A stretch of DNA of 64,000 nt, taken from assembly GCA_946405435.1 (NCBI GenBank), contig CAMJHF010000008.1:1-64000 (forward strand), in the 5' to 3' direction. The notes below the pieces were generated by a model. It had not been told where the DNA came from. It saw only the letters and a program-made list of their open reading frames with translations, and did no database searches. Position numbers and translations under genes: made by a program. Numbering within the stretch: position 1 is the stretch's first letter; each line of letters begins with the position of its first letter. Of this stretch, positions 31,423 to 53,182 are shown piece after piece. Source of the DNA: an uncultured Bacteroidales bacterium (lineage in GTDB: Bacteria; Bacteroidota; Bacteroidia; Bacteroidales; UBA932).

Positions 31423-31463
31423 CTTCTTGACGGATTTCGGTTTCTGAAGTGGCAGCCTGTCAT

Positions 31464-32408: not shown

Positions 32409-32426
32409 ATTTAATTTGACCGACCT

Positions 32427-33437: not shown

Positions 33438-33475
33438 AGTACTGACTTATGAAAGATAAAGAGCGGTCCGGGGCT

Positions 33476-34465
33476 CTAATTTCCGAGCAATTTGAAAAAT
33501 AACTTTCCGATATGCGGGAAATGCCAGGCGACGAGGATGGCGAGCCGTTCTGTCAAAGGAATCATCTTGGTGGAAGCATATTCCCGCAGAGTATTCTTTC
33601 TGACGTCTTTGCACAGGGCGGAGAACTCCGGATAAAAGTCAGTACCCATCAGGCTGTAGCAAGCCGTCTGCATTTGTCTGTATGTTAATCCGAGCAGCCG
33701 CCCTCTGAAAGGAATATCATTGTCCGGTCCCGTCAGAGACAACAGCGACGCGAGGTGGGTTATACTCTCAAACACCTGCTTTGCAAAATCGGTATGCGTT
33801 GCGGAACCGGAGTGTTGGCGCCATAAGTAAAGTGTTTGGCACAAATGTGCGGTCCGCCGTGTCTTTTGAAGCAGGATAAAATTAAAGCCGAAATCTTCGT
33901 AGTAACAGGCGTGTATAAAACGCAGACCGCCCACCAGTGACCGGCTGTAAAGTTTATTCCAAATTGCACTGGGATACGTTTGCGAATGATTCGAGGAGCC
34001 TGTAAGAAACTGCAGCCGTTCGAAGGAATCATATTCCCGGATATGACTGCCGGCGGCATCCCCGGGAATAGTGTCCGTCGGTTTTCCTTGCGCATCGATC
34101 CTGGCTGCATTCCACGAAACCCAGTCGTAGGCGCCGGATTGTATCAACGTTGCTGCAGCCTGTAGCATTCCGGGGAGCACGACGTCATCGCTGTCGATAA
34201 ATTGGATATATGTCCCCCTGGCCTGGTCCAGGCCGCGGTTGCGCGCAAATCCAACCCCGCTGTTCTCCTGGTGGATAACCCTGAACCGGGAATCTTTCCT
34301 GCAGAAATCATCGCATATGGCTCCGGATGAATCCGTAGAACCGTCGTCGACCAGGATACACTCGAAACCGGTGTATGTCTGTGCGGCGATGCTTTCCAGG
34401 CACTCCTCAAGGTACGGAGCTGCGTTGTATACCGGAACGATGATACTGATCAGCTCTTCCTGCAT
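33476..34465 (-). CDS. Family 2 glycosyltransferase
   Basis: The 329-residue enzyme has ISIIVPVYNAAPYLEECL, CILVDDGSTDSSG and YIQFIDSDDVVLPG. A SAIWNKLYSRSLV acceptor segment and an LYLWRQHSGSATH block follow. It overlaps the start of the upstream GT2 gene's stop by 16 bases (34450-34465). It is one of the SVIVPVYN-type set. No lesion seen. Confidence 0.9.
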   Translation of the reverse strand: MQEELISIIVPVYNAAPYLEECLESIAAQTYTGFECILVDDGSTDSSGAICDDFCRKDSRFRVIHQENSGVGFARNRGLDQARGTYIQFIDSDDVVLPGMLQAAATLIQSGAYDWVSWNAARIDAQGKPTDTIPGDAAGSHIREYDSFERLQFLTGSSNHSQTYPSAIWNKLYSRSLVGGLRFIHACYYEDFGFNFILLQKTRRTAHLCQTLYLWRQHSGSATHTDFAKQVFESITHLASLLSLTGPDNDIPFRGRLLGLTYRQMQTACYSLMGTDFYPEFSALCKDVRKNTLREYASTKMIPLTERLAILVAWHFPHIGKLFFKLLGN

Positions 34466-35265
34466 AATGTGTAAACGAAAAAAGCGATGACACTCTCAGC
34501 CATGTAATGCAAGGCGCTGCGGCAGCGGTTCAGGGGAGTGCTGCGCTTGAGATGCATTTCCAACCGGCGCATTTTGGCAAAACTGCGGGGGCTGTCGAAG
34601 TATTGGCGCCAGATGTTGCGGGACATGCTGTCGTTCTGCTGATATTCCACCAGGCAAAGCGGCTTGTTGGCCACCAGCAGGGGATAGTCGTCGCATACCT
34701 GCAGCAGCATGTAGATGGGGTTGAAGTTTTTCTCGCCGGGGAAACCCACCTGCGGAGCCACCCGCTTCATAAGGTCGGTGCGCATTACCTGCTTGGAATC
34801 CCCGCGATGTATACGTTTGGCGTAAAGATCAAGCAGATAGCATTCTGCCATGCCTTCCGGGAAGAAGCCGCCTATGGGCTTTCCGCCGTCCATGTCAACA
34901 TCCAGCCCGATAAGGCCGGCAACGCTCTCCGACCCCCTGCTCTGCCACTCCGAAAGAATAATCTCCACGGCATCCGGCGGCATGGCATCGTCGCTGTCTA
35001 TGCATACGTTAAGCTCGGTCCGTATGGCCTCGTATGCTGTGTTATACCCTGTGTAAAGGCCGCCGTTCTCTTTGTAGATGTACTGGATGGGTATCACGCC
35101 TTCGGCAATGAAAGAATGCACAAGCTCAGCTGTATTGTCCGTAGACCCGTCGTCCACCACAAGCCAGTCGAAGTCCTTGCAAGTCTGGCAGCAAAGGCTC
35201 TTGTAGAGGCGGGGGAGGGTGTGGGCCCTGTTGTATGTGGGGGTAAAAACAGTCAGCTTGTTCAT
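34450..35265 (-). CDS. Family 2 glycosyltransferase, short type
   Basis: ATG at 35265 (MNKLTVFTPTYNRAHTL) overlaps the EpsG stop by one base (TAATG). The 271-residue protein has LVVDDGSTDNT, NVCIDSDDAMPPDA and a NEGLYTGYNTAY-like loop (read as NGGLYTGYNTAY). It matches the compact GT2 group with FTPTYNR openings common in Bacteroidetes capsule loci. The C-terminal helix ESVIAFFVYTLCRKS is hydrophobic. Confidence 0.9.
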   Translation of the reverse strand: MNKLTVFTPTYNRAHTLPRLYKSLCCQTCKDFDWLVVDDGSTDNTAELVHSFIAEGVIPIQYIYKENGGLYTGYNTAYEAIRTELNVCIDSDDAMPPDAVEIILSEWQSRGSESVAGLIGLDVDMDGGKPIGGFFPEGMAECYLLDLYAKRIHRGDSKQVMRTDLMKRVAPQVGFPGEKNFNPIYMLLQVCDDYPLLVANKPLCLVEYQQNDSMSRNIWRQYFDSPRSFAKMRRLEMHLKRSTPLNRCRSALHYMAESVIAFFVYTLCRKS

Positions 35266-36350
35266 TACCAGAAGACAAACCACATGAACATCGAGAAAGC
35301 CGAGTATGCCAGCAGCACCAGCCCCGTAAACCTGTCCTGATCATAGCGTATTTCCAGATTGACCAGGGGGTAAGCTATTACGATCGGGTATAGAAACCAC
35401 GAAAGGTAGGCGAAGCGGTTGCTGAAAGCGGAGCGTATGACCATGATCCAGAATGCATTGCAGAGCAGGTAAACCGTGCATATAACATCGTACCAGTTGT
35501 CGGAAGCCTGCTGCTTTATGCAAACATACCAAGCCATGAGGACCGGAAGTGAACTGTACAGAAGAAAATCCCAGCGGAATCCCTCGTGTGAAAATTCGTT
35601 GGACACGAGAGTTGTGTACTGCGTCATTCTGTCATCGAAGCCCAGGCTGGCAAAGAAGCTTTCAAACGTGCCGCCCGCAATCAGTGAAATCAATATCGAG
35701 GCAAGCCAGAATACAATGAATTTTTTGACGTTACGCGACAGGAACAGAGCCGTGACGAGTGCTACAATTGGCAGCATTACGCTTCTGTGAATGCCGAATG
35801 CCATCAGCGAAACCAATATCCCGGGCAACCATTTGTCTTTGAGCATGAATGCCATAGCCAACAGAAACAGATGGCAGGCAAGCCCGTTCCTTAGACCGTT
35901 GGTGGCAAAAGGGAAAAACATCAGAGATGCAAGCACGAAAACTGTTCCGAGCATCGGGTCGTCAGGCATCAGACTCTTTACGGCACACAGTGCTGACATG
36001 ACATAACCTGCAGCTATTATGGTAAAGAAGGCATGAATGCTCAATCCGGCAGCCTTGCAGCCGTTCTTGAGCAATTCCCACACCCACTCACTGCTCCAGT
36101 TGACATGTACCGAGTAAGGATCGAGCCTGGCATATTCCAAGGCATAATTGGTGGTATCTCCGAATGCTGAACTTACTGGCCGGAGGCCAATCCATAAAAC
36201 GAACCACGCGCATAATAAGACGGGAAGGATTAAAGAACTTCCTTGTTCTTGATGCTTATAGTTATCAGAAGCAAGCCTTGGTAATGCAATGACAGTGGAT
36301 AGTGCCATCATTGCCCCTGTAAAAACCTTCTGATAAAGAAACGGGCTCAT
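35265..36350 (-). CDS. epsG: EpsG-family membrane protein, probable polysaccharide polymerase
   Basis: The 361-residue protein has about ten membrane helices. It carries the EpsG marks: a D-T-x-NY periplasmic motif (GDTTNYALEY), a helix with FFPFATNGLRNGLA, and FGIHRSVMLP. EpsG proteins are Wzy-like polymerases that join lipid-linked repeat units outside the membrane. It is flanked by GT32 and GT2 genes with 4- and 1-base overlaps. A polymerase in a locus that also has a Wzm/Wzt exporter is unusual. Confidence 0.85.
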   Translation of the reverse strand: MSPFLYQKVFTGAMMALSTVIALPRLASDNYKHQEQGSSLILPVLLCAWFVLWIGLRPVSSAFGDTTNYALEYARLDPYSVHVNWSSEWVWELLKNGCKAAGLSIHAFFTIIAAGYVMSALCAVKSLMPDDPMLGTVFVLASLMFFPFATNGLRNGLACHLFLLAMAFMLKDKWLPGILVSLMAFGIHRSVMLPIVALVTALFLSRNVKKFIVFWLASILISLIAGGTFESFFASLGFDDRMTQYTTLVSNEFSHEGFRWDFLLYSSLPVLMAWYVCIKQQASDNWYDVICTVYLLCNAFWIMVIRSAFSNRFAYLSWFLYPIVIAYPLVNLEIRYDQDRFTGLVLLAYSAFSMFMWFVFW

Positions 36351-37081
36351 TTAAAAAGCTTTCCGATGCGTGAAATAAAACCGACGCCGAATAATCTGCG
36401 TGCCAGGCGTTTTGCTGTGACTGTCAGTTTTGATTCCCGGGTCATCCAAGACTTGGAATACCAATGTATAGAACGTGTATTCACGGTTTTATTGAGCCTT
36501 CCGGTAGCATCGTCAAACGGATTGAACCATTCCGGGGGATAAACAAAAAAGCCGGCTGCACTTTCTATGTCACCATTCCCATTCAAGCCGCGGTCAAGCA
36601 GCATCTGAGTCACCATAGGAATCATGGTGACTGGATTCATTCTGCCGTCGGGCAAGAACATTGTCAGGGATTCATAACGCAGTAAAATATCTGCAAACAA
36701 TTCCATTCCGGCTTCGGCCGCCATACCGAGACCTGGTGCGACGGCAATCGTTGAGTTTTTTCCTAAACTCTCGAAACCCATGTACGGCCCCCTGCTCAAA
36801 ATGTCATCCATGGGCTTGATTACTTCTACATCCGTGTCAAAGTACACGCCGCCATGGTCATACAGCACCCTGAAACGGGCGTAGTCGCTTACAAAAGCAT
36901 ATTTGCCTGCCGCATAAGCATCTCTGGTATAGGAGATGATGTTGACGTCGAAATTGCTCTCGTCCCAACGGCATATTTCATAGTCCGGAAGATACCGCTT
37001 CCAACTGGCGATGCACTTGCAGGCCAGCTCCGTCAGAGGCTTGCCGCCGAACCAGAAATAGTGTATGACTTTAGGTATCAT
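36347..37081 (-). CDS. GT32-type glycosyltransferase (DXD)
   Basis: ATG at 37081 (MIPKVIHYFWFGGKPL) overlaps the upstream stop by 4 bases. The 244-residue protein has the GT32 opening IPKVIHYFWFGG, KYAFVSDYARFRVLYDHGG and YFDTDVEV (metal-binding DTD), as in capsular sugar transferases with the Gly_transf_sug domain. In Bacteroidetes these often add mannose or galactose. Intact and of usual length. Confidence 0.93.
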   Translation of the reverse strand: MIPKVIHYFWFGGKPLTELACKCIASWKRYLPDYEICRWDESNFDVNIISYTRDAYAAGKYAFVSDYARFRVLYDHGGVYFDTDVEVIKPMDDILSRGPYMGFESLGKNSTIAVAPGLGMAAEAGMELFADILLRYESLTMFLPDGRMNPVTMIPMVTQMLLDRGLNGNGDIESAAGFFVYPPEWFNPFDDATGRLNKTVNTRSIHWYSKSWMTRESKLTVTAKRLARRLFGVGFISRIGKLFK

Positions 37082-38214
37082 CGGGCTTTTATTATTGATG
37101 CGATCGCTGCGGCGCATCCTGGATTGTCGAGGGGCACTATAGTGGCATTGCCTATGGAGTCGGCAACATCGGCTACGGTGGGGAAGTTGGTGAGAATGAC
37201 GGATTTGCCAAGAGCCGCAGCCTCATGAACGGTGACCGGGTCGCCTTCGTATCGCGAGGGCTGCACATATAGGTCGCAGGCCTTCATGTAGGGGTATGGG
37301 TTGTCTTTCTTGCCCAGGATGACCACCTGCCCTCCTGAACCCTCCTTATCTATTTTTTCCCTGATCAGCGCCTCGTCGGGTCCGTAGCCGATAAGATACC
37401 ACACTGCTGACAGCCCTTGGGGATTCAATTGCACGTTGAGCCTGCGGCAGATATCCGGCACGTTGTCGTAATTCTTGGCGTGGCAGAAGCGGCCCACGGA
37501 CAGCAGGTTGACTGTGTTTTCCCGGCGGGGCATTTCCACTTCTACAATGTCTTTCGGCATACTGTCGGCACGCGAAGCTATATATCTGCGGGGCAGCAGG
37601 TTCGCCTTGACTTCAATCTTGTCGTCAAGTTCGGGGAAGCGCGTCAGGAAGGCTTTGCGGACGCTTTCCGTAATGGCCACGATGCGGTCGTAGGCTCCCC
37701 ATACAGGCGCCTCGATTGATGCATCTACATCCACTTCGGAGTAGTCGGTATGAATCCAGCATATCTTTTTCTTTGCCTTGACCTTCTGCAGCACATAGTC
37801 GTGTGGCGCAAGCCAGCTTATGGCCATGTCGTATTCTTTCCGGGGGTTGATTGCCGGCATCAGCGGGGCAACCTTGCGGGCAACATATTGGAATACGGCA
37901 GATCCGTCCCGCGGGTGTGTCCGCCTTGCATATCGCTTATACTCGTATCTTCCACGTAGCCTTGCTGCTGCAATTCTAAAGTAGCCCGACTTGACCACAT
38001 CCTTCAGCGGCCTTTCAAGCTGCGCGTATTCGGGTATCTCGGGCAGCAAATGTACCGGTGTCGGAATGGCGCCCATCAACTCTCCACGATGAGAGTACAC
38101 AAACAGGTCCACATCATACTTGCCATAGTCCAACGACTCCAGCAGCCCTATAAGGCTGTTCTCGGCGCCGCCAAGTTCAAGATAGTGAATGGCAAAGAGG
38201 AGACTCTGCTTCAT
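37078..38214 (-). CDS. Family 4 glycosyltransferase
   Basis: ATG at 38214 (MKQSLLFAIHYLELGGAENSL) overlaps the next gene by 4 bases; the longer frame is an N-terminal artefact. The 378-residue enzyme has LGGAENSLIGLL, CWIHTDYSEVDVD, LSVGRFCHAKNYDNV at the donor site and YEGDPVTVHEAAALGKSVI. The HEAAALG form is typical of a subgroup of Bacteroidetes capsule GT4 enzymes. The sugar is unknown. Confidence 0.9.
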   Translation of the reverse strand: MKQSLLFAIHYLELGGAENSLIGLLESLDYGKYDVDLFVYSHRGELMGAIPTPVHLLPEIPEYAQLERPLKDVVKSGYFRIAAARLRGRYEYKRYARRTHPRDGSAVFQYVARKVAPLMPAINPRKEYDMAISWLAPHDYVLQKVKAKKKICWIHTDYSEVDVDASIEAPVWGAYDRIVAITESVRKAFLTRFPELDDKIEVKANLLPRRYIASRADSMPKDIVEVEMPRRENTVNLLSVGRFCHAKNYDNVPDICRRLNVQLNPQGLSAVWYLIGYGPDEALIREKIDKEGSGGQVVILGKKDNPYPYMKACDLYVQPSRYEGDPVTVHEAAALGKSVILTNFPTVADVADSIGNATIVPLDNPGCAAAIASIIKAR

Positions 38215-39167
38215 TTCCGGCAAAATTGCAGACGGGCGCAGTGCTGCAGCAGCCGCACTCCTTTCCATGGGTTGCGGGAATTCCAGATGACGCGGGAGAT
38301 AGCCCGCCACCTAGGGAAACCATACTGCGGCGCTGCGAGAAAACATCGGTCAAATGCTTCAGGATCCATCTTCAGCATTTCCCAGAAGTATTGCACCGTG
38401 ACTCTGGACCAGTTGCGTTTTCCGCGCCCAAGCAGCTTGTGAACTCGAAATTCGGCCATCGTCCGGCATTCCGCCTCGCCAGGCTTCCAGCCGATCCCGT
38501 ATGACAGTGAACCGGGCCGTTCTGTCAACGCGTACACGGCCTCGTGACATATTTCCACGGCGGATATGACCTGGGAAAGACGAGCTGCGAACATTACGTC
38601 GTTGGAAAACGGAATTTCTTCGAACCGGATTTCCGGATGCCGCCCGAGCAGGGCGCGGCGGATCATTTTGCAGCTTGGAATCTGGAAGTCGGCGCACAAT
38701 TCTGCTGAACGGTCGGCAGCCTTCGTGTCATCCAACAGCCGGTTGAAATGATTGAGGCGCTGCGAAGGGACGGAAGGGTCATCCGACATTACGGCTCTGA
38801 ACTTATAAAAAACGATGTCCGCAGGCGAATCCAAGTACTTGTCAAACGTATCCCATGCTCCCGGCAGGAAAAAATCGTCTGCATCGGCAAACATTACCCA
38901 GGTCCCGAAGGCATCCTGCAGACCCAGGTTTCTCGCATATCCTGCTCCGCCTCGCTTGGGAGCCCGGATCAGGCGGACGTTCCGTCGCCCAAGTTCCGGG
39001 AGGCGCTCGCTGTATTCATCTGCGCCCGGACTGTTGTCGTCTACGACAAGTACCTGAATATCATTTCGCTGCGGAATGGAAAGAAGACACCGTGAAAGCA
39101 AATCTGGAATATTGTAATGCGGAATTACAACAGTGTAGTTCGTAATATTTCCCTGCTTTGAGATCAT
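38211..39167 (-). CDS. Family 2 glycosyltransferase
   Basis: The 318-residue protein opens with TVVIPHYNIPDLLSRC, has QVLVVDDNSPG and WVMFADADDFFLPG (metal site). After that it diverges from the other GT2 enzymes, with FEEIPFSNDVMF and ERPGSLSYG blocks. That form is common for galactosyl- or rhamnosyltransferase-like proteins of Bacteroidales capsules. It follows the fimbrillin-like gene after 28 bases. Confidence 0.88.
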   Translation of the reverse strand: MISKQGNITNYTVVIPHYNIPDLLSRCLLSIPQRNDIQVLVVDDNSPGADEYSERLPELGRRNVRLIRAPKRGGAGYARNLGLQDAFGTWVMFADADDFFLPGAWDTFDKYLDSPADIVFYKFRAVMSDDPSVPSQRLNHFNRLLDDTKAADRSAELCADFQIPSCKMIRRALLGRHPEIRFEEIPFSNDVMFAARLSQVISAVEICHEAVYALTERPGSLSYGIGWKPGEAECRTMAEFRVHKLLGRGKRNWSRVTVQYFWEMLKMDPEAFDRCFLAAPQYGFPRWRAISRVIWNSRNPWKGVRLLQHCARLQFCRK

Positions 39168-39195
39168 ACCTTCACGATGCCCTTTTCAATCTATT

Positions 39196-40185
39196 TTATT
39201 GCTTCGTCATTTTAACTTCCACAGTGTAGAAGTTCTCATACATAAAAGTCACATTCTCCTTTTGGTATGTGTACGTTTCGCCACCTGCAGTTGCGGTGAG
39301 TTTGATTGTGGCGTCCTGTACGCCCGCCAATATGCCGGTACCGTTCATGTCGCCTGTGAGAGCCGCATAAATCACGTCAGTCGGAGCGGTAGGATTAATG
39401 ACCACGGCTCCGGTATGCAGGCAGGCGAGGTAAGGATTATCCTCCGGTGCCGGAAAAGCGGAAGGACCCGTAGGTATGGATGACATATACTCCAGCAACT
39501 TTTCTCCGTCAACCTTCAAGGGCTCGAATAGCGTGATGAAATGTCCCGGGCTGTTGACTGTGGAAATTTCCAGTCTGCTGGCATTTAGAGGGTTGCCCGA
39601 TTCATCTTTCAGGATGAACTTCACAATGGCCTGGTAGGCATGGAAATAAGGCTGGTAAGTGCCGGAAATAGTAGAACCGTTGATGCCGTAAATATGGTAG
39701 GTAGACTCGGCGTAGTCATATTTTCTGGCGATGGTTTCGAGGGTTCCGTCCTGCCCGGTATAATCGTAAACCAGGTCGGGCCTGTGCTGGTACGTCAGAA
39801 AGAGGTTCTGGCCGGCATAAAAAGTGCCTGACAGTTGGCCGACCAATGTTGTGACCGGGCCGGATGTGGTAGCGGTAAGCACTCCGACAGGCTTCATGAT
39901 GTCCTCGGGTTTGGCGTTGGCATAGTCGGCGGGGGTGCTGGGATTGGACATGACCAGCACTGTTTCCCCTGCAACCCATGAACTTGTTATTGTTTCTCCG
40001 TTGTCGGTAATCTGAACGTCCAGCCCCTTGGTATAGGGATTCACGAAGGAAGATGCGCCTTCCCTCGAGGCTTCAAAAGAAACTGAAAATGTTCCGGTCT
40101 GAGAGAAGATGGTCTCTTTTTGAGAGCATGAATTGATCATGCAGATTCCGCATACTACTGCGGCCATCAATACTGATTTCTTCAT
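39196..40185 (-). CDS. Fimbrillin-like lipoprotein
   Basis: The 329-residue product has a lipoprotein signal peptide ending at Cys20 (CMINSC). The mature part resembles the fimbrillin/Mfa-like family: an early FSVSFEAS strand, ITSSWVAGETVLVMSN (the W-x-x-GE/D-x-V pattern), VTTLVGQLSGTFYAGQNLFL, and a C-terminal ENFYTVEVKMTKQ strand that could be a donor strand. Such proteins form type V pili or coat the surface. Only one is present here, without an Mfa2/FimB-like anchor or assembly genes. It is preceded by a 58-codon gene. It may be a surface protein that binds or is linked to the glycan; that is inference. Confidence 0.75.
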   Translation of the reverse strand: MKKSVLMAAVVCGICMINSCSQKETIFSQTGTFSVSFEASREGASSFVNPYTKGLDVQITDNGETITSSWVAGETVLVMSNPSTPADYANAKPEDIMKPVGVLTATTSGPVTTLVGQLSGTFYAGQNLFLTYQHRPDLVYDYTGQDGTLETIARKYDYAESTYHIYGINGSTISGTYQPYFHAYQAIVKFILKDESGNPLNASRLEISTVNSPGHFITLFEPLKVDGEKLLEYMSSIPTGPSAFPAPEDNPYLACLHTGAVVINPTAPTDVIYAALTGDMNGTGILAGVQDATIKLTATAGGETYTYQKENVTFMYENFYTVEVKMTKQ

Positions 40186-40201
40186 GATACAGTTCTTTTA
40201 A

Positions 40202-40378
40202 TTAGTTCCACGTCTGAGATCCGTTGTTGTAGTATCTCTGGCCGTTTCTGACGTTGTTGATTGAAAGTGTAGGATCAGTGACACTTGCGCCTCCGCTGAC
40301 GCAGATAATGCCGCTGAACTCTGCCTCCAAATCCATTATGGACGGAGCGGCATAAAGAATTTTTTTGTTTTTTGTCAT
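40202..40378 (-). CDS. Small 58-residue peptide with N-terminal PxxxxLE-type segment and Gly-Gly
   Basis: A 59-codon frame from ATG 40378 to TAA 40202 fills the gap between the nucleotidyltransferase and the fimbrillin-like lipoprotein genes. It has a basic start (MTKNKKILY), an APSIMDLEAEFSGIICVSGG segment (residues 11-30) and a polar Asn/Thr-rich tail ending RYYNNGSQTWN. Many Bacteroidota carry 50-70-residue peptides with this PxI-x-x-LE...SG layout near surface-protein genes; their role is unknown. The Gly-Gly at 29-30 could be a leader-cleavage site, but no C39 peptidase or peptide exporter is in the window. The codon pattern and exact fit between flanking genes favour a real gene. Confidence 0.65.
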   Translation of the reverse strand: MTKNKKILYAAPSIMDLEAEFSGIICVSGGASVTDPTLSINNVRNGQRYYNNGSQTWN

Positions 40379-40396
40379 GATAAAAAATTTAAGTAG

Positions 40397-41578
40397 TTAA
40401 TATGAATGAAATAATGATTTGAATCTCAATATAATACGTTTGAATATGCGGTTGCTGGCAATCGGCTTGGCCATTTTTACCAACCCCAGCCAGCAATAGA
40501 CCAGGGGGCTCTGCTCAGTACGCAGTCTTGTGCCGACGGCAGTTCCTGCCATCTTGTCCCTTCCTGCCGACAGAACATTGCGCCTGAACTTGAAGTCGAC
40601 GAATAATATCTCCAAATCTTTGCTGTTTGCTCCCAGGCTTTCTATCCAGCCGCGAGGGAACAGTTCCGGCAGGTATCCGGCAAAAAAGCGGCAGACAATG
40701 TACAATTGACATCCGGTGCCTGTCAGCTCAGCGTCACTTTTGATTCTTGCCCAGTCAAGACCTGTATTTGCCGCGGTCAGGAACTTAAGGTCGAAAAAGG
40801 TGTTCAGTATGCTCTGCCCGGACTGCTTTTTCTGCAGGTTCTTGAATGTATTGACCAGCAATATGAAAACCAGATCCTCACGGCAGGGAATCAAGCCTCT
40901 TGTAGAAAACATGGGCATTTCTTCCGCCCTGGCAAACAATGGCCCGGTAAACCGTTCTTCCATGCCGGTCCCGAGGTCAAGCCGGCAGTGTATGTCGGCA
41001 ACGGCTGTCTGGCTTCCGGGAATATGCAGGTCGGTACTGTATCCGCATGCCATAGGGTCTCCGTACCCCAGGCCCGACGCAAGACGGATGGACTTTCCGT
41101 AATCATTCTCGCCGACTATCAGGTCGATATCCGTCATCCATCTTGGCATGTCCGGGTTTAGCAGTTTCATCGCCGCCCCTTTTATCAATATGAAGGGGAT
41201 GTTATTATCGCTCAATGCAGAGGCGATACGTGAAAAGTGCTTTGCAATTGTTGCATTATGCAGTTCGGCAACGGCCTCTCCGCCTTTAAGTCTCGGCAGC
41301 AGTGTGTCCGGAACCGAAAAATCAGAACGCTCGCCAAGGACATGGCAGACGAGAAGCACACTTTTGAGCGAAGCGTTTGCGGCGTCCCAGGACTTCAGAA
41401 AAGCATCGAAGTCCGCCTGTGTTTTGCTTTTGTCGAACGCCAGGGTCAAAAGCAGATTGTCTTCCGCCTCCAGCAGCGAGCTGTAAATATCTTCGATCCT
41501 ATCCTGCTTGAAAGGAACCAGTCCGGCCACAAGGACGGCAGCAAGCAGCAGGAGAATGAATGTCAGGACAATTGGCAT
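40397..41578 (-). CDS. PF14907-like nucleotidyltransferase family protein
   Basis: The 393-residue protein has the NTP_transf_5 pattern FILIKGAAMKLL (KGA at 133-135) followed by RWMTDIDLIVGENDY with metal-site Asp150 and Asp152. An ILNTFFDL helical block lies near residue 260. The first 22 residues are very hydrophobic, so either it is membrane-anchored or translation starts further in; the ATG at 41578 overlaps the aminotransferase gene by 16 bases. PF14907 proteins occur with peptide-natural-product and polysaccharide genes, and some are thought to modify a small molecule or peptide. Here the next gene is a small peptide. Confidence 0.72.
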   Translation of the reverse strand: MPIVLTFILLLLAAVLVAGLVPFKQDRIEDIYSSLLEAEDNLLLTLAFDKSKTQADFDAFLKSWDAANASLKSVLLVCHVLGERSDFSVPDTLLPRLKGGEAVAELHNATIAKHFSRIASALSDNNIPFILIKGAAMKLLNPDMPRWMTDIDLIVGENDYGKSIRLASGLGYGDPMACGYSTDLHIPGSQTAVADIHCRLDLGTGMEERFTGPLFARAEEMPMFSTRGLIPCREDLVFILLVNTFKNLQKKQSGQSILNTFFDLKFLTAANTGLDWARIKSDAELTGTGCQLYIVCRFFAGYLPELFPRGWIESLGANSKDLEILFVDFKFRRNVLSAGRDKMAGTAVGTRLRTEQSPLVYCWLGLVKMAKPIASNRIFKRIILRFKSLFHSY

Positions 41579-42759
41579 GAACTCTTGATTATGTCACAGA
41601 TATAATGGACATCTTCCTTGCTGACAAGCGGTCCGCTTGGAAGGCAGAGACCGGTGCGGAACAGGTTTTCAGCCACTTTTCCCCCATAATAAGGGACATT
41701 TGAATACAAGGGTTGCAGATGCATTGGTTTCCAGAGCGGCCGGGATTCTACGCACCGGGCCTCGAGACATCGGCGAAGAGCCTCTACATTGGCGTTCGGT
41801 GCGTCGCCTGGGTCAACGGCAAAGGGTTCTATGCTCTCCTGGCCTTTGATATGCAGCTCGGGATTCAAAGAAATGACGCTCAGCCAGTAGTTGCTTTGAA
41901 TCCTTTCCGCCGGACTGAGGTGGACCTTTATTCCTGGCATGTCATTGAGCAGCTCTGAATAAAGCCTGGCCACCATTATGTGATGAGCCAGATGGTCTTT
42001 CAGTACGGTCATCTGGCCGCGCCCTATACCGGCGCTGATATTTGACATTCGGTAGTTGTAGCCCAGTTGCTTGTGCTGATAGAATGGATACGGCTCGCGG
42101 GACTGGGTGGCATAGCGGAACATCTTTTCCTTTGTCTCTGCATCCGGACAGATAAGTGCGCCGCCGCCGGATGTGGTGATCATCTTGTTGCCGTTGAAAC
42201 TCAGCACACCGAAACGACCGAAGGTTCCGAGGCTCTGGCCATCAAAGCGGCTTCCGAGCGCTTCGGCGCTGTCCTCTACTACGGCAATACCGTAATGGTC
42301 AGCGATTTGCATGATCTTATCAATATGATAGGGCATGCCGTATAGAGACACCGGCACGATGGCTTTGGGCGCGCGCCCGGTTTTGTGGATCCGGTCTAGA
42401 ATGGCTTCTTCCAGAAGGTCAGTATCCATATTCCAGGTGGCGCTCTCGCTGTCTATCAGCACTGGTTTTGCTCCTTGGTAGAGGATGGGATTGACGGAGG
42501 CGCAGAAGGTAAAGCTCTGTGCTATGACTTCATCGCCTGAGTCCACGCCGCAGCCTATCAGCCCAAGGTGAACGGCGGCAGTGCCTGACGATACGGCCAG
42601 CACTTCTTTCTTTCCTCCCAGGAATGCCTTAAGGTCTTCTTCAAAACCGTCCACATTGGGCCCGAGCGGCACCACCCAGTTTTCGTCGAAGGCTTGCTGT
42701 ATGTATTTTTGCTCGGCTCCGCTCATGTGAGCGAGGCAGAGGATGATTTTCTTATCCAT
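41563..42759 (-). CDS. DegT/DnrJ/EryC1-family sugar aminotransferase
   Basis: The 398-residue PLP enzyme has SSGTAAVHLGL (57-67, phosphate cup), VVEDSAEALGS (160-170) and the Schiff-base Lys192 in FNGNKMITTSGGGAL. This subgroup transfers an amino group to a 4-keto (or 3-keto) UDP- or dTDP-sugar. EpsN/PglE/WecE-like members make 4-amino-4,6-dideoxy sugars. The matching 4,6-dehydratase is not in the window. Its product could be acetylated by the GNAT protein at 25.5 kb. A 14-codon frame overlaps its start (see separate entry). Confidence 0.93.
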   Translation of the reverse strand: MDKKIILCLAHMSGAEQKYIQQAFDENWVVPLGPNVDGFEEDLKAFLGGKKEVLAVSSGTAAVHLGLIGCGVDSGDEVIAQSFTFCASVNPILYQGAKPVLIDSESATWNMDTDLLEEAILDRIHKTGRAPKAIVPVSLYGMPYHIDKIMQIADHYGIAVVEDSAEALGSRFDGQSLGTFGRFGVLSFNGNKMITTSGGGALICPDAETKEKMFRYATQSREPYPFYQHKQLGYNYRMSNISAGIGRGQMTVLKDHLAHHIMVARLYSELLNDMPGIKVHLSPAERIQSNYWLSVISLNPELHIKGQESIEPFAVDPGDAPNANVEALRRCLEARCVESRPLWKPMHLQPLYSNVPYYGGKVAENLFRTGLCLPSGPLVSKEDVHYICDIIKSSCQLS

Positions 42760-42796
42760 TTATTTGTTCAATCAAATCTATCATGCGTTCCTTCAT
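42752..42796 (-). pseudogene. Micro-ORF or remnant ahead of the DegT gene
   Basis: A frame MKERMIDLIEQING ends 8 bases into the DegT coding sequence. It can be read back without stop through RYLNHSTANG into the 3' end of the neighbouring GT2 gene (to about 42830). The composition resembles the C-terminal helix of a globular enzyme rather than a leader peptide. It may be what remains of a deleted gene or a translation-coupling mini-cistron. I cannot name the parent protein. Confidence 0.25.
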
Positions 42797-42809
42797 GCCA
42801 TTCGCAGTA

Positions 42810-43865
42810 CTATGGTTTAAATATCTTCCTGAGGCCATTGAACGACCATCTTAAAAACGAAATAGCAGGATAACAACGGGCACGATATGCTGCTAAGAAC
42901 AGGCGGTTCTCTATCCCAAAGTGGTTGTTGGCCGATATGAAATCCAGACAATGGACAACTTTGGGACGCGAAAGGATTCGAAGCACTTCTTCCCGTTTCC
43001 ATTTGCGTGAAGATGGCGCATCCGGATGGAATGTGTTGAAAAGGATTGAGGTTTCGATGCCTTGATAAAAACGCCAGTAAGCGTTGGACTCCAGTCGCTT
43101 TTCTTCCAACTGCCAGTCTTTCATGAAATTGCGGATTCCGTCGTAGACGGATTCGTAGATTAGAATCCGGTCGGGAATGTAACGGGAACGGTTGTTACCG
43201 CTGTCGTAAAAATAGTAATGATATAGTGGCAAGGATGAGACATATACCCTTTCCGCAAAGGGATAGAGCTTGAGGTTGAACAGCTCATCCTGTTGTATTC
43301 TCTGTCCGCCGAACCTGGCTCCTGTACGTTCTATGAAAGACCGCCGGTAGAACTTGTTCCACGCAAAGCCGTTGCCGTTCGGGACAAGGAAGAGTTCGTC
43401 AAGGAAGACCGCCTTCAGTTCCGCGTTGCTTTCCAGCAGCCTTTCCTTGAAGTGCGAAGTCTCTGTCTTTCCGCTTTCAGAATACGTGAACCGGATGCCA
43501 AAAATGTTCATATCCGTACTGTATTCCTGCATCCACCTGACGTTCTTCTCAACAAGATCCAAGTCGGCGTCATCATCGACGTCATAGAACCAGACAAAGT
43601 CGCCCAGGGCCACGTCCAGCCCTGCGTTGCGGGCGCTTCCGAGACCGCCGTTGGCCTTATTAACAATCCGGATACGTGGGTCCTCTGCAGCCAGTTTGTT
43701 GCAGATGTCAGGCGTCTCATCGGTAGAGCCGTCATTGACGAGAATGATCTCAAGGTCATGCCAAGTCTGATTCCGCACGCAGGAGAGCCCCTTATCCAGA
43801 AGGTAACGAGCCACGTCGTACAGGCAGATGATGACACTGACCTTGCCGTTATCTTCGAAATCCAT
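42810..43865 (-). CDS. Family 2 glycosyltransferase
   Basis: The chosen Met (MDFEDNGKVSVIICLYD, 43865) gives 351 residues and a 17-base overlap with the previous gene; a start at 43892 is possible. Motifs are SVIICLYDVARYLL, ILVNDGSTDET and FVWFYDVDDDADL, where an extra Asp precedes the metal site. A FAWNKFYRRSF acceptor segment follows. It closes the run of five GT2 genes that ends at 47868. The Asp-rich DVDDDAD is unlike the FIDSDD of its neighbours. Confidence 0.88.
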   Translation of the reverse strand: MDFEDNGKVSVIICLYDVARYLLDKGLSCVRNQTWHDLEIILVNDGSTDETPDICNKLAAEDPRIRIVNKANGGLGSARNAGLDVALGDFVWFYDVDDDADLDLVEKNVRWMQEYSTDMNIFGIRFTYSESGKTETSHFKERLLESNAELKAVFLDELFLVPNGNGFAWNKFYRRSFIERTGARFGGQRIQQDELFNLKLYPFAERVYVSSLPLYHYYFYDSGNNRSRYIPDRILIYESVYDGIRNFMKDWQLEEKRLESNAYWRFYQGIETSILFNTFHPDAPSSRKWKREEVLRILSRPKVVHCLDFISANNHFGIENRLFLAAYRARCYPAISFLRWSFNGLRKIFKP

Positions 43866-44883
43866 GGAGTCTGGTCTTTTTGACTTTGGCATATATGTAT
43901 AGCTTCCGCAGAGTGAGCAGCAACGATAAAGATGCCGTCTTGCCGGACAAGATCATTTCCTTGATGCGTTCCGAGCGCGTCCGGCTCGATCTTAATGCTG
44001 CCGAACAATACCTGCTGTCCTGAATAAAAGCAATGCAGTCCCTGATCTGGTCACAACAAGGCCTGTCAAGTTCAAGGAACAGCGAGATGGACAGGTTGGC
44101 TATGGCTTGGAATACAAGCTGCCGGTTGCCGTACGTCATTGCATCTTCGGATTCCAGGAGTCCGGCGCATCTGGAATGGACATTGATAAGATGCCGATAA
44201 GATGCGCAGTTTCGTTTAGCCTTCCCACGCTCGGAGTGAAAATAATGGTAGCCGGTCTCTGGGAAACAGTAGAAACTCTCGCTATGAGCGAAACAACCGA
44301 GGAAGAAATCGTAATCTTCCATAAGCGACATCCCTTCGTCAAATCTGAGCCGGAATCTGTCCAGAATGCTTTTGCGTACCGCTTTGTTCGTAGCGAAACC
44401 GAACAGGCCTTTCCGTTCGCCGTATTGGTCAGAAGGGAATGCCGTAAGGAATTCTTTCCTGCTATAGAAGCCGTTCAATCTGGGGTTGGAGGCGACGGCC
44501 CTTCCATCAGGATAACAGTGCATGATTCCCCAGACAATCATATCCGCGCCTGAAGACTTGGCCTTTGCGGCTATATGAGGAAGGTAATCCTCGTCAATCA
44601 CATCGTCGGCATCGATGAATACGACATACTCTCCACGGGCCAGGTCAAGCCCGGAATTTCTGGCGGAGGATACACCTGAATGCGGTTGCCGGACATAATG
44701 GATCCATTGTGCTTCTGCAGCAGCCTGTTTCACATCCTCGCCGGTTCCGTCGGTAGAACCGTCGTCGACCAGGATAACCTCAAGGTCGCGGAACGGTTGG
44801 GCCCGAAGAGATTTCAGGCACCTGGTTACCGTCCCGGACATGTTGTAGACAGGTATAATGACACTGATGAAAACGGGATTCAT
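43849..44883 (-). CDS. Family 2 glycosyltransferase
   Basis: ATG at 44883 (MNPVFISVIIPVYNMSG) overlaps the upstream stop by 4 bases; the longer frame is out of line with family starts. The 344-residue enzyme has ILVDDGSTDGTG and VVFIDADDVIDED. An MSLMEDYDFFLGCF segment follows, the ED-x-x-F acceptor/base region of GT2 enzymes. A Lys/Arg-rich tail follows a hydrophobic helix. Confidence 0.9.
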   Translation of the reverse strand: MNPVFISVIIPVYNMSGTVTRCLKSLRAQPFRDLEVILVDDGSTDGTGEDVKQAAAEAQWIHYVRQPHSGVSSARNSGLDLARGEYVVFIDADDVIDEDYLPHIAAKAKSSGADMIVWGIMHCYPDGRAVASNPRLNGFYSRKEFLTAFPSDQYGERKGLFGFATNKAVRKSILDRFRLRFDEGMSLMEDYDFFLGCFAHSESFYCFPETGYHYFHSERGKAKRNCASYRHLINVHSRCAGLLESEDAMTYGNRQLVFQAIANLSISLFLELDRPCCDQIRDCIAFIQDSRYCSAALRSSRTRSERIKEMILSGKTASLSLLLTLRKLYIYAKVKKTRLHGFRR

Positions 44884-45857
44884 TTCGTCTTCTGGAGAAA
44901 GGAATATATCCGTACAGCGACTGCATACCAAGTCTTGCCTTTGTCTGCCGCAGCCAGCAACTGCCTCTGTGCAGGTGAAAGAGATGGATTCTTTTTATTG
45001 TCAGGGTAGTATTTCCGTATGATACGGAAAAGCATTTCCCGTTGTGCTCCATAGGTATGGGCCAACTGTCCCTCAGTTTTCAACAATAGTCCGACACAAC
45101 ATGAGAGCAGGTTGCCGGCAGCCCATGCCGAGGATTCAGGATGCCGTTCCCGGATAAAGGCGTAAACATCTTCAGCATTGACAACTTGATCAAAGGAATG
45201 CGGGTTCAGGGAAGATGTGGTGATGCTGCCTGGACGGCGCCGATAAGCATAAAGCGCGTTGTGATTGATTGCGATGCGGTCGCAGCGGTCAAATATACGC
45301 ATGGTCACCGGATAATCTTCGTTGTTCCGTCCGTCAGGATAGCGGATACCGTCAAAGAGCGACCGGTGATATAATTTGGTCCAAGCCGAGTACCATTTAT
45401 TGTTCTTCAGAGCTTCTGCAATGACATTACCGCTCGGCTTGCACTCAGACTCGGCGGAAATACAGGGGAACGATGTGTTTTCACCCTTAAACAAAAGGGC
45501 CTGGCAGAAAGACAGCCGTGTTCCGAACTCTGATATGTCTCCCAAAAGGCGTTCATACATCTGCGGATGAATGAAATCATCGCTGTCAACGAATCCGATG
45601 AATTCTCCGCTGCAAGCATCCAGCCCCGTGTTGCGGGCTACCGAGAGGCCACCGTTCTCCCGGTGTATTACCACCACCCGTTTATCCTCCGCGGCGATCC
45701 GGTCGCATATTGTTCCGCTTGCATCCGTAGAGCCATCATCGACAAGGATGATTTCGAGATTTCTGTATGTTTGGCGTCGAATGCTTGAAACACAGGTTTC
45801 CAGCCAGGGCTCGACTTGATAGACTGGAACTATGACGGAAACGAGAGGCCGAATCAT
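44880..45857 (-). CDS. Family 2 glycosyltransferase
   Basis: The 325-residue enzyme opens LVSVIVPVYQVEPWLETC, has ILVDDGSTDASG and FIGFVDSDDFIHPQMYE, then YSAWTKLYHRSLF and GRNNEDYPVTMRIFD (ED base motif). Overlaps of 4 bases at both ends tie it to the adjacent GT2 genes. In family terms it resembles WcaA/EpsJ-like beta-transferases; no sugar can be named. Confidence 0.92.
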   Translation of the reverse strand: MIRPLVSVIVPVYQVEPWLETCVSSIRRQTYRNLEIILVDDGSTDASGTICDRIAAEDKRVVVIHRENGGLSVARNTGLDACSGEFIGFVDSDDFIHPQMYERLLGDISEFGTRLSFCQALLFKGENTSFPCISAESECKPSGNVIAEALKNNKWYSAWTKLYHRSLFDGIRYPDGRNNEDYPVTMRIFDRCDRIAINHNALYAYRRRPGSITTSSLNPHSFDQVVNAEDVYAFIRERHPESSAWAAGNLLSCCVGLLLKTEGQLAHTYGAQREMLFRIIRKYYPDNKKNPSLSPAQRQLLAAADKGKTWYAVAVRIYSFLQKTK

Positions 45858-46888
45858 GAGATGGCTTTCTTATGACGTTCGAAGAGGACGCGTGAAACGA
45901 CCCGAAAATAGTAATAGGCATTTCTGTCTCCCATGGAAGGGTCGGCCCATTTCCAGGCCAGGAATGGCTTGATTCCAATCTCTTTTGTGGCCAGCAGGCG
46001 TCGTACGGGATAATAGAACAGTGAGTGATACTGCTTGAATGACTCCAAATCCATGGTCTTCAATTGGTTTGCCAGGAAGATTTCCGGAATGGTCTTCTCA
46101 AGATAAAACCGTGCAATCTTTGGGTGATTCTGCAGGCCACGCTCTGCAATATATTGTTTGTAGAGCACCATTAATGATAGAAAACGCTCTATTTTGACGA
46201 GGCCTTTATGCCGGCTTGTAATCGAGCCTTCGTGCAGGTGATACCGATACAATGCTTCCCGGACAGTGGCGAGCGAACCTGCACTTGTTGCCAACTTGAA
46301 ACTCCATAGCTCATCTTCAAAAATGTACCCCTCCGGAAAAAAGAGGCTGCATCCCAGAACAACGTCTCGTTTTATGAGTTTGTTCCAAGCCATAACATAC
46401 CATTTCCGGTCCAAATACAGGTCAAGGACCTTCTCGTTGCCGACAACGCTCTCCTGTGTAAATCCAAGTTCCGCCCGCTTTTCTTGCCCGCAGTTGACGA
46501 TGCAATGTTCACCTATAACTACGTCGGCATTAGTAGACAATGCACGTTCCATCAGTTTTTCGAGGCAGTCCTCAGTGATTTCATCATCGGCATCCAGAAA
46601 AAAGAGATATGACCCGCATGCGGCGTTGATGCCGGAGTTGCGGGCGGCCGATAGGCCCTTGCGCTGCTCGTGGTGGATGATAATTAAGCTGAAGTCGCCT
46701 TCCTCTCTACAGGAATGGATCGCCTTTTCCGCCAGTTCGATGCTACTGTCGCCACAGGCATCGTCAACCAGGATTAGTTCTATATTCTGATATTGCTGAT
46801 GAATTACAGACAGAACGCAGCGTTCAATATATTCTTCCGCCCGGAAAACGGGTACGATGACAGAGATTTTAGGACGAGATTGGGGCAT
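45854..46888 (-). CDS. Family 2 glycosyltransferase
   Basis: Met at 46888 (MPQSRPKISVIVPVFRAEEYI) leaves a 5-base gap to the upstream stop; another Met six codons earlier is possible. The 344-residue protein has ILVDDACGDSS in place of DDGSTD, LFFLDADDEITED, and WYVMAWNKLIKRD. The first part of the Asp-Asp motif is therefore atypical (DDACGDS), as in its neighbour (DDCGTDDS), which suggests these two are closest relatives. Confidence 0.9.
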   Translation of the reverse strand: MPQSRPKISVIVPVFRAEEYIERCVLSVIHQQYQNIELILVDDACGDSSIELAEKAIHSCREEGDFSLIIIHHEQRKGLSAARNSGINAACGSYLFFLDADDEITEDCLEKLMERALSTNADVVIGEHCIVNCGQEKRAELGFTQESVVGNEKVLDLYLDRKWYVMAWNKLIKRDVVLGCSLFFPEGYIFEDELWSFKLATSAGSLATVREALYRYHLHEGSITSRHKGLVKIERFLSLMVLYKQYIAERGLQNHPKIARFYLEKTIPEIFLANQLKTMDLESFKQYHSLFYYPVRRLLATKEIGIKPFLAWKWADPSMGDRNAYYYFRVVSRVLFERHKKAIS

Positions 46889-46893
46889 GAAAG

Positions 46894-47868
46894 CTAGCGG
46901 CGGCAAATCCTGTAGTAAACAGGGGAGATGTATTTCATCAGGAGATATGCTTTGAAGTTATCTGCACAGATATGTCTCGCTTTTCGGTAGGGGAGCCTCC
47001 AAAGCCGGGCGCAGTAGGTGTAGAAAGCCTTCTTATCGCCATTTTGGGCAATTGCGATTATGCATTTTAACAGCAATTGGTAATACTTGGATTCCACCTC
47101 TTTTACGCATGGATGGCTAACTTCTTTCAGCGAACTCAGAATTCCCCGTAGATTTGCCTCCGCCTCCAAAACAAATAACCTGTCCTTATTTGTGGTAATG
47201 CTGTTTTCTCGCGCTCGGTAATAGTAGAGGCGATCGGGGATGAATATGGTTTTATACTGTTTGCTCTCGATAACAGGATACAAAGAGAACATCAACAGGG
47301 TATCTTCACCGTTTCGGCCTTCGACGAATCGAATATCCTGAAACAAGGAGGAACGGAAAAGCTTCGCCCAAACAACATTGCTGATCCGGTCAGCAAGGAA
47401 AGCCCCCGCGAAATCTTCCGGCGGGATGACCGTCTTTCCCTTGCCAAGAGTTGCCGTCGATCCGAATCTGGGCCACGTCGCTTCCGTCTTGCAGCAGCAG
47501 CCCAGGATGGCGACATTGTCGTCTTCATCCTGTATCGCCCTCACCAGCGTTTCGTACAGGGTAGGCATGACATAATCGTCGCTGTCGATAAAACTGATAA
47601 AGTCGCCATGGCAAGCATCAATTCCAGTATTCCGTGCCGCGGAAAGGCCGCGGTTGCGGTCGTGATGCAGGATGGAAAAGGATATCTCCCCTGCGTAGTC
47701 CTGAAGCATTCTTTCCACTTTCTCCATGCTGTCGTCCGTGCCGCAATCGTCCACGATAATCACTTCCAGGCGCTTGTAGGTCTGGTCCATGACGGACTTA
47801 AGGCACTCCTCGACGTAAGGAGATACATTATAAACAGGTATAATGACGGAAACCAGCGGATCAATCAT
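46894..47868 (-). CDS. Family 2 glycosyltransferase
   Basis: Met at 47868 (MIDPLVSVIIPVYNVSPYV) overlaps the Wzt stop by 8 bases; a longer start at 47889 is less likely. The 324-residue enzyme has VIIVDDCGTDDSM, FISFIDSDDYVMPTLYE and NVVWAKLFRSSLF, then GRNGEDTLLMFSLYP. It is the first glycosyltransferase after the export genes. The DDCGTDDS motif is shared in form with the next gene. Confidence 0.9.
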   Translation of the reverse strand: MIDPLVSVIIPVYNVSPYVEECLKSVMDQTYKRLEVIIVDDCGTDDSMEKVERMLQDYAGEISFSILHHDRNRGLSAARNTGIDACHGDFISFIDSDDYVMPTLYETLVRAIQDEDDNVAILGCCCKTEATWPRFGSTATLGKGKTVIPPEDFAGAFLADRISNVVWAKLFRSSLFQDIRFVEGRNGEDTLLMFSLYPVIESKQYKTIFIPDRLYYYRARENSITTNKDRLFVLEAEANLRGILSSLKEVSHPCVKEVESKYYQLLLKCIIAIAQNGDKKAFYTYCARLWRLPYRKARHICADNFKAYLLMKYISPVYYRICRR

Positions 47869-52380: not shown

Positions 52381-52382
52381 GG

Positions 52383-53174: not shown

Positions 53175-53182
53175 AAAACGAT

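What the first reader, a model, noticed from the sequence alone, without database searches (positions are those of the whole stretch)
39196..41578. Nucleotidyltransferase, 58-residue peptide and fimbrillin-like lipoprotein form a compact cassette inside the glycan operon
Seen: a PF14907-like protein (KGA at 133-135, Asp150/Asp152), then a 58-residue peptide with an N-terminal PxI-x-x-LE segment and a Gly-Gly at 29-30, then a Cys20 lipoprotein with fimbrillin-like strands. Gaps between genes are 16-18 bases. Known: PF14907 proteins occur near peptide-product and polysaccharide genes; fimbrillins coat the surface. Inference: the trio may make a modified peptide or tether the capsule to a lipoprotein. 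I cannot identify the same combination from memory, so it may be undescribed.
Basis: partly seen in the sequence, partly recalled or inferred. Interest (0 to 1): 0.75.

Follow-up and report, generated by a model that had tools for sequence, protein, structure and literature searches.

The report
Modified-peptide cassette paired with fimbrillin
Three adjacent genes in a Bacteroidales genome (a nucleotidyltransferase-family enzyme, a 58-residue peptide and a predicted lipoprotein with a pilus-protein-like modelled fold) recur together in two related species, and the peptide belongs to a large family, mostly encoded just upstream of predicted lipoproteins, that is likely phosphorylated, trimmed and exported by a central machine resembling that of a peptide class published in 2026 whose biological role is unknown.

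Summary
In detail: all three genes are at the stated places, with the residues named. The trio is more than chance: the same three genes, same order, 33-47% identical, recur in 2 of the other 399 same-genus genomes searched, in different surroundings. The peptide belongs to a many-copy family (46 of 61 same-genus genomes at E <= 0.05, up to 23 matches in one): invariant Tyr, YxxP in 81 of 82, a Ser usually 19 residues after the Tyr, variable tail. At least 83 of 90 unique members (66 of 73 outside the seed set) lie directly upstream of a Cys-lipoprotein gene. The only PqqD/RRE found in the genome lies in an operon with a kinase-like protein, an archaeal-signal-peptidase-like protein and an ABC exporter. 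In another family of the order a family peptide heads that operon, which there includes PF14907. This resembles the gene set of 'linear polyphosphorylated peptides' (LPP; Nat Commun 2026), called restricted to Bacillota. Best reading: the peptide is a precursor of an LPP-like modified peptide, PF14907 a tailoring enzyme, the fimbrillin-fold lipoprotein its surface partner. Chemistry and partnership are inferred; a capsule tether is untested.

The parts
40397..41578 (-). PF14907 (NTP_transf_5) protein, 393 aa, N-terminal hydrophobic helix; LppN/PsmN-like tailoring enzyme (function inferred)
   Evidence: Pfam 9.7e-20; D150, D152 and H197 invariant, K133, G134 and R146 at least 90%, in 23 aligned rows; NTase fold; helix 2-20 in the model
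40202..40378 (-). 58-residue peptide of the YxxP...CxS family; predicted precursor
   Evidence: profile E 1.8e-16 with A1, which includes it; 90 unique family members collected
40343..40354 (-). YxxP motif, residues 9-12 (predicted RRE-binding leader motif)
   Evidence: Y9 in 82 of 82, P12 in 81 of 82; YxxP is the RRE-binding motif of lasso and LPP leaders (passages of PMC13381572 and PMC6784204)
40295..40303 (-). C26-V27-S28: predicted core residues 1-3, S28 the predicted phosphorylation site; cleavage predicted after residue 25
   Evidence: S in 77 of 82, C in 63 of 82; Tyr-to-Ser spacing 19 in 74 of 77 against 18 in LPP, whose core Ser3 is phosphorylated; inferred
40205..40294 (-). variable tail, residues 29-58; D35, R48, Y49, G53 and W57 kept among the three trio peptides
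   Evidence: alignment of the three trio peptides
39196..40185 (-). Cys20 lipoprotein, 329 aa, fimbrillin-like modelled fold; predicted surface partner of the peptide
   Evidence: homologous lipoprotein in both other trios, 35% and 38%
41563..42759 (-). DegT/DnrJ aminotransferase directly upstream (glycan operon context)
   Evidence: Pfam 6.6e-87; DegT (73% identical) also precedes PF14907 in G256
26148..53794 (-). surrounding glycan operon: glycosyltransferases, EpsG-type protein, ABC-2 permease/ATPase, Wzc-like, Poly_export, Bac_transf
   Evidence: Pfam of 20 of its proteins

Best explanation
The trio is a conserved cassette whose 58-residue peptide is likely the precursor of a modified peptide of the linear-polyphosphorylated-peptide (LPP) sort, with PF14907 likely a tailoring enzyme acting on that peptide and the fimbrillin-fold lipoprotein its likely surface partner. 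Shown: the three genes and their recurrence; the peptide family, its YxxP and CxS positions and its pairing with predicted lipoproteins; the one PqqD/RRE operon found elsewhere in the genome (kinase-like, signal-peptidase-like, PqqD, ABC); a family peptide and PF14907 inside one such operon in another family. Inferred, step by step: (1) the central PqqD binds YxxP of the leader; (2) the HprK-like kinase phosphorylates S28; (3) the signal-peptidase-like protease cuts near residue 25, leaving a core that starts C26-V27-S28; (4) PF14907, membrane-anchored by its N-terminal helix, adds a nucleotidyl or sugar group, perhaps drawn from the surrounding glycan operon, to the phosphoserine; (5) the ABC exporter moves the product to the periplasm, where it joins the fimbrillin-like lipoprotein.
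For: Trio in G456 and G434 with homologous peptide (33/47%), lipoprotein (35/38%) and PF14907 (43/42%). Family in 46 of 61 same-genus genomes. 80 of 90 unique peptides are followed within 60 nt by a rule-called Cys-lipoprotein, 83 counting three by eye; outside the seed set 65 of 73 by rule, against 11 of 167 adjacent same-strand gene pairs. G054 (another family): peptide - HprK-like - signal-peptidase-like - PqqD - PF14907 - ABC in one operon; G068: peptide - lipoprotein - PqqD - PF14907 in tandem (PqqD, PF14907 and, in G054, the ABC ATPase over Pfam cut-offs). The peptidase's best NCBIfam match is archaeal-type signal peptidase I (1.8e-8 in G054, 8.1e-6 in L110, 0.002 own; under cut-off), the type named for LppS. 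Motifs kept across 13-14 loci: G.SM.P / HR / GDG; SGTGKSTH and NDD.P; PqqD LN and A..D. 23 of 73 PF14907 places lie within 5 kb of a PqqD hit. LPP has the same six kinds of gene and Tyr-to-Ser spacing 18; PsmN, annotated as a nucleotidyltransferase, is reported to add hexose to the phosphoserine of pseudomycoidin.
Against: No family peptide lies in the 20 kb fetched around the own-genome PqqD operon; of 20 PqqD loci examined 6 hold a peptide in the fetched stretch, and 4 of those 6 were fetched because one was known to be near. PqqD/peptide co-occurrence is weak: 42 of 52 PqqD+ against 4 of 9 PqqD- genomes, Fisher P 0.033 (genus); 8 of 95 against 1 of 53, P 0.16 (order). The middle of the LPP leader motif (VLxHQxIxFET) is not shared. 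Kinase and peptidase names rest on motifs and matches under the curated cut-offs. Window-type PF14907 mostly stands near PqqD (15 of 19 named loci) without a family peptide (0 of 19). Deleting lppN did not change the detectable products in the published LPP host. Fimbrillin fold was tested only for the window's lipoprotein.
Confidence: 0.6

Rival explanations
1. The peptide is a cytosolic small protein or leader ORF that controls expression or targeting of the lipoprotein encoded next to it, and is never modified or exported.
For: At least 83 of 90 peptides end within about 60 nt of a lipoprotein start and some overlap it, as an upstream regulatory ORF would; no signal peptide is seen in the peptide sequences (read by eye); in the own genome the PqqD operon has no family peptide within the 20 kb fetched.
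Against: Conservation sits in a YxxP...CxS segment with near-fixed spacing (74 of 77 at 19) while the tail varies; a family peptide heads the kinase-like/peptidase-like/PqqD/PF14907/ABC operon with no lipoprotein next to it (L244).
Confidence: 0.2
2. PF14907 here is a glycan-operon enzyme whose nearness to the peptide-lipoprotein pair is accidental; only the pair is functional.
For: No family peptide stands beside PF14907 of the window's clade in 19 named loci; the peptide-lipoprotein pair is far more common than the trio.
Against: The trio recurs in G456 and G434 with all three proteins homologous and in other surroundings; PF14907 stands in tandem with a family peptide in G054 and G068.
Confidence: 0.15
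3. The peptide is a lasso peptide precursor.
For: YxxP-type leader, RRE, HprK-like kinase, nucleotidyltransferase and ABC exporter all occur in kinase-bearing lasso clusters.
Against: Lasso peptidase B2 (PF13471) matched in 2 of 64 genomes, over cut-off in one, and not in the own genome; a Gly/Ala/Ser/Cys start with Asp/Glu at 7-9 in at most 16 of 82 tails. The cyclase was not searched.
Confidence: 0.03
4. The cassette is a nucleotidyltransferase toxin with a small antitoxin peptide, carried beside a lipoprotein.
For: The best Foldseek match of the PF14907 model is the MenT1 toxin (5.2e-5).
Against: Weaker matches to ANT(2''), LnuA and FKRP show that the fold is shared by non-toxins; family peptides stand mostly with lipoproteins, and beside PF14907 in few of the loci examined.
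Confidence: 0.03

Closest known systems
Linear polyphosphorylated peptides (LPP; Popov et al., Nat Commun 2026, PMC13381572)
   Same: Same kinds of gene (precursor, HprK-like kinase, discrete RRE, archaeal-type signal-peptidase-like protease, NTP transferase, MsbA-like exporter), YxxP leader, conserved Ser about 18-19 residues after Tyr, variable C-terminus, frequent seat in capsule loci.
   Different: Bacteroidales instead of Bacillota; precursors scattered (up to 23 profile matches in a genome) and mostly paired with Cys-lipoproteins; leader shares only YxxP and the Ser; spacing mostly 19, not 18; PF14907 absent from the own-genome operon and present in the cassette.
Kinase- and nucleotidyltransferase-bearing lasso peptides (paeninodin, pseudomycoidin; PadeK, PsmK, PsmN)
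   Same: HprK-like kinase and nucleotidyltransferase acting on a peptide; RRE (B1); [Y/W]xxP leader; ABC exporter.
   Different: Lasso B2 peptidase not found in the own genome (2 of 64 genomes searched); no lasso-ring pattern in most tails. The cyclase was not searched.
Type V fimbrillins and FimA-like Bacteroides adhesins
   Different: No Pfam fimbrillin hit; the next genes downstream are glycosyltransferases, not pilus anchor or tip genes; no upstream YxxP peptide was seen in the papers searched.

Membership tests
LPP (linear polyphosphorylated peptides) | Discrete RRE | tested here: met
   Own-genome PqqD 54.5 bits against 23.4; also in G054 and G068
LPP (linear polyphosphorylated peptides) | MsbA-like ABC exporter in the cluster | tested here: met
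   Own operon: ABC_membrane and ABC_tran over Pfam cut-offs; MsbA model 3.3e-66 among the best NCBIfam matches, under its curated cut-off
LPP (linear polyphosphorylated peptides) | HprK-like kinase | tested here: inconclusive
   P-loop SGTGKSTH and NDD.P invariant in 14 rows; HprK-related kinase A 5.9e-4 (G054) and 0.0088 (own), PEPCK_ATP 8.4e-5 (L114), all under cut-off
LPP (linear polyphosphorylated peptides) | Archaeal-type signal-peptidase-I-like leader peptidase | tested here: inconclusive
   TIGR02228 sigpep_I_arch best match: 1.8e-8 (G054), 8.1e-6 (L110), 0.002 (own), under cut-off; Ser, His, Asp motifs kept in 13 rows
LPP (linear polyphosphorylated peptides) | NTP transferase in the same cluster | tested here: inconclusive
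   Present in the operon in G054, absent from the own-genome operon; 23 of 70 PqqD hits have PF14907 within 5 kb. Whether LppN is PF14907 was not stated in what I read
LPP (linear polyphosphorylated peptides) | Precursor leader YxxPxVLxHQxIxFETxxS | tested here: not met
   YxxP 81 of 82 and Ser 77 of 82 kept, the middle of the motif not
LPP (linear polyphosphorylated peptides) | Phosphorylated core Ser3 and leader cleavage by mass spectrometry | not testable with these tools
   Needs expression
LPP (linear polyphosphorylated peptides) | RRE inside the LPP clade | not tested
   LppB sequences were not at hand
Lasso peptides | B2 transglutaminase-like peptidase (PF13471) | tested here: not met
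   Not in the own genome (85% complete); 2 of 64 genomes searched
Lasso peptides | Asp/Glu at core 7-9 behind a small first residue | tested here: not met
   16, 8 and 14 of 82 at three assumed starts
PF14907 NTP_transf_5 | Pfam score over cut-off and NTase active-site residues | tested here: met
   71.6 against 31.2 bits; D150, D152 and H197 invariant in 23 rows
Type V fimbrillin | Fimbrillin fold on a lipoprotein | tested here: met
Type V fimbrillin | Pfam fimbrillin family (PF13149, PF06321 and kin; names recalled) | tested here: not met
   No fimbrillin family listed at E <= 1
Type V fimbrillin | Polymerisation into a pilus | not testable with these tools
   Needs microscopy or biochemistry

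The most novel reading that the evidence does not exclude
Bacteroidales of this genus run one central LPP-like machine that phosphorylates, trims and exports a whole repertoire of scattered peptide precursors, each encoded with its own surface lipoprotein, so that every lipoprotein is delivered with a custom modified peptide; in the window's cassette the glycan operon's PF14907 links that peptide through its phosphoserine to a capsule sugar, making a phosphodiester peptide bridge between capsule and fimbrillin.
Probability: 0.2. Interest if true: 0.92.

Novelty: new variant of a known kind. Interest (0 to 1): 0.8.

Why it matters
The LPP paper says these peptides are restricted to Bacillota and that their biological role is unknown. 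Here a similar machine occurs in Bacteroidales next to, or in the same genomes as, a many-copy family of YxxP peptides, and most of those peptides are encoded beside a predicted lipoprotein (a fimbrillin fold was shown for the window's). If the link is real, the class gains a candidate job (a peptide ligand or modifier of surface lipoproteins) that can be tested pair by pair, and PF14907, whose LPP counterpart had no visible activity in the published host, gains natural substrates beside its gene and, in this window, a glycan operon that could supply a donor.

Tried and rejected
Led nowhere: the billion-protein search with the peptide found only near-identical copies (2); with P0002 it found 3, from a capped candidate list. 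Pfam and NCBIfam give no family over cut-off for the peptide or the lipoprotein. The own PqqD sequence finds TfuB1 (E 0.043) and unrelated proteins among solved structures; the peptidase only a chance-looking CYLD match (4.8e-4). The PF14907 tree does not separate PqqD-near from other copies (11 label changes on 42 labelled rows, shuffled mean 13.8); it puts the window protein in a six-row clade with P0110, two PqqD/HprK-type copies and two copies flanking a Wzt-like ATPase.

Considered and rejected: a GG-type (C39) leader, because the double Gly is not conserved; a lasso peptide; a trio restricted to this species, which I held after (0 of 19 loci) and gave up. Selection to be told: the regions of G033, G081, G035 and G054 were fetched because a peptide was already known near PqqD; G113, G143, G165, G167, G085 and G095 because the genome held a peptide somewhere; among the other PqqD loci of that call peptides turned up in G167 and G068:C6. 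The 19 seed peptides were picked from short-frame hits after I had seen their downstream genes; hence the separate count without them. Rows dropped: of 90 unique peptides 8 were left out of alignment A2 (five mis-called starts, one near copy, one contig-edge case, one oversight); one search used 73 PF14907 places retyped, without most second pieces and short partial hits. Peptides without a rule-called lipoprotein: 10 of 90; three are lipoproteins by eye, L065 lies 177 nt from a contig end, and L069, L091, L172, L191, L197 and L200 have none that I could call.
Full report

THE PEPTIDE FAMILY. A search of 5.8 billion clustered proteins sees only near-identical copies. A translated search of 61 related genomes (E <= 1) gave 30 fetched places; in 20 of them the hit lies in a short frame (35-83 codons), and 19 of those 20 have a Cys-lipoprotein gene next downstream (the twentieth, L033, is at a contig end); the other ten are in long or unrelated frames, one of them (L023) with a lipoprotein downstream too (read by eye). 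A profile of 19 such peptides hits 46 of 61 same-genus genomes at E <= 0.05, with up to 23 matches in one, and 13 places in the own genome at E <= 1. From the loci then held 90 unique peptides were collected. Of 90, 80 are followed on the same strand within 60 nt by a gene that my lipobox rule calls a Cys-lipoprotein; three more (the window, L078, L073) are plain by eye. Without the 17 seed peptides the rule count is 65 of 73. Comparison: among 167 adjacent same-strand gene pairs in the window and 25 other stretches, 11 downstream genes are called lipoprotein. In an alignment of 82, Tyr is invariant, Pro present in 81, Ser in 77, Cys two before the Ser in 63; the Tyr-to-Ser spacing is 19 in 74 of 77; tails vary (median 18.5 residues), are acidic (23% D/E, 2.5% K/R) and have W, F or Y within the last three residues in 52 of 82. 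With the 82-row profile at E <= 0.01 the own genome has 14 matches, and 7 genomes of other families among the 148 searched in the order have one or more, so the family is rare there or too diverged to see.

THE TRIO IS CONSERVED. A named-genome scan with the window's PF14907 clade gave 19 loci, all from Bacteroidales or Bacteroidia MAGs, 6 of them titled from goat, yak, water deer or buffalo stomachs: PqqD lies close in 15 of 19, an HprK-like gene in 12 of 19, a family peptide in 0 of 19. A wider search (400 same-genus genomes, 19 with a match at 1e-40, the own one included) then showed the exact trio in two more, G456 (L283/L304) and G434 (L286/L305). Peptides are 33% and 47% identical to the window's, with D35, R48, Y49, G53 and W57 of the tail kept; lipoproteins 35% and 38% (E 4e-47 and 2e-63); PF14907 43% and 42%. 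In G456 the trio directly follows a permease 77% identical to the window's ABC-2 permease; in G434 it follows a tricorn-type protease, and besides the lipoprotein no called neighbour matches a window protein at 1e-8. G256 has a like glycan operon (DegT 73%, permease 80%, ATPase 87% identical; later genes alike by eye), but there PF14907 is cut short, no peptide or lipoprotein follows, and another glycosyltransferase-like ORF stands in their place (replacement, deletion or assembly fault).

THE MACHINE. One PqqD/RRE was found in the own genome (85% complete), in an operon of a 299-aa protein with the P-loop SGTGKSTH, a 152-aa peptidase-like protein with Ser, His and Asp motifs (G.SM.P, HR, GDG), PqqD and an ABC exporter. 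The peptidase's best NCBIfam match is archaeal-type signal peptidase I and the kinase matches HprK-related kinase and PEP carboxykinase models, all under the curated cut-offs. Like operons recur in the genus, some with PF14907 between PqqD and the exporter; 52 of 61 genomes have PqqD and 37 of 61 PF14907. In G054, from another family, a family peptide is the first gene of peptide - HprK-like - peptidase-like - PqqD - PF14907 - ABC; in G068 the order is peptide - Cys-lipoprotein - PqqD - PF14907; in G035 a peptide-lipoprotein pair stands 319 bp from PqqD-PF14907; in G167 a pair ends 1.5 kb upstream of machine genes. In all, 6 of 20 PqqD loci examined hold a family peptide in the fetched stretch, 4 of them known beforehand. 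PqqD and peptides are associated in the genus (42 of 52 against 4 of 9, Fisher P 0.033); two of the four exceptions are genomes 61-63% complete. At order level 8 of 95 against 1 of 53 (P 0.16).

WHAT IT WORKS LIKE. In May 2026 Popov et al. (PMC13381572; I read the abstract, sections 6, 7 and 12, and passages) described linear polyphosphorylated peptides in Bacillota: precursor of 35-200 aa with YxxP leader and variable C-terminus, HprK-like kinase, discrete RRE, archaeal-type signal-peptidase-like protease, NTP transferase and MsbA-like exporter, first met in capsule loci. The kinase puts several phosphates on core Ser3, the peptidase leaves two residues before that Ser, and YxxP is needed for RRE binding; deleting the NTP transferase did not change the detectable products; the role is unknown; the class is called restricted to Bacillota. 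A review (PMC9266682, passages) reports that PsmN, annotated as a nucleotidyltransferase, puts hexoses on the phosphorylated Ser of pseudomycoidin. By analogy the window peptide would be cut near residue 25 to leave C26-V27-S28 at the front, with S28 phosphorylated and PF14907 adding the next group. The gene kinds and the YxxP-to-Ser geometry are tool results; the chemistry, the cut site, the export and the binding to the lipoprotein are inferences. I do not file it as an LPP: the middle of the LPP leader motif is not met, kinase and peptidase identities are under curated cut-offs, and the RRE clade was not tested.

NOVELTY. The searches of the open library (listings, plus passages of six papers) showed me no description of a YxxP peptide paired with lipoproteins, nor of LPP-type clusters in Bacteroidales. 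A Bacteroidales RiPP-mining paper (PMC10352776; three passages) has no word beginning fimbri- or lipoprotein, and its 'PqqD' and 'lasso' stand only in the reference list and glossary. RRE-Finder (PMC7470986, passages) and a rumen lasso survey (PMC7533575, passages) do not describe it in what I saw. Subscription papers are not in the library. No tool names the genus.

Noticed in passing
G000:C9 78000-87000 (L076:2810-6453): Two peptide-lipoprotein pairs stand in tandem within 4 kb of the own genome, the second peptide being a weak profile hit (E 0.13; layout).
   Followed up: partly
window 14945-16900, 18848-20410, 20413-21516: Among the glycosyltransferases lie a rhamnogalacturonan-lyase-like protein, a chondroitinase-B-like beta-helix protein and a radical SAM/SPASM protein.
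   Followed up: no
L263:8705-12086, L277, L279-L282: In some relatives a Wzt-like ATPase (82% identical over 261 residues to the window's in G017) is flanked by two PF14907 genes.
   Followed up: no
L264, L266-L276: PF14907, HprK-like and PqqD genes stand together among glycosyltransferase-like genes (by eye) with no family peptide in view; their substrate is not evident.
   Followed up: no
L306:9865-11269 (G256): A like glycan operon in which PF14907 is cut short, the peptide and lipoprotein are absent and another glycosyltransferase-like ORF follows.
   Followed up: partly
G013:C1 (L302 at 494687-495040; PqqD 488357; PF14907 495359): G013 alone has a lasso-type B2 peptidase hit over cut-off, near PqqD and PF14907: a possible true lasso cluster in this genus.
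   Followed up: no
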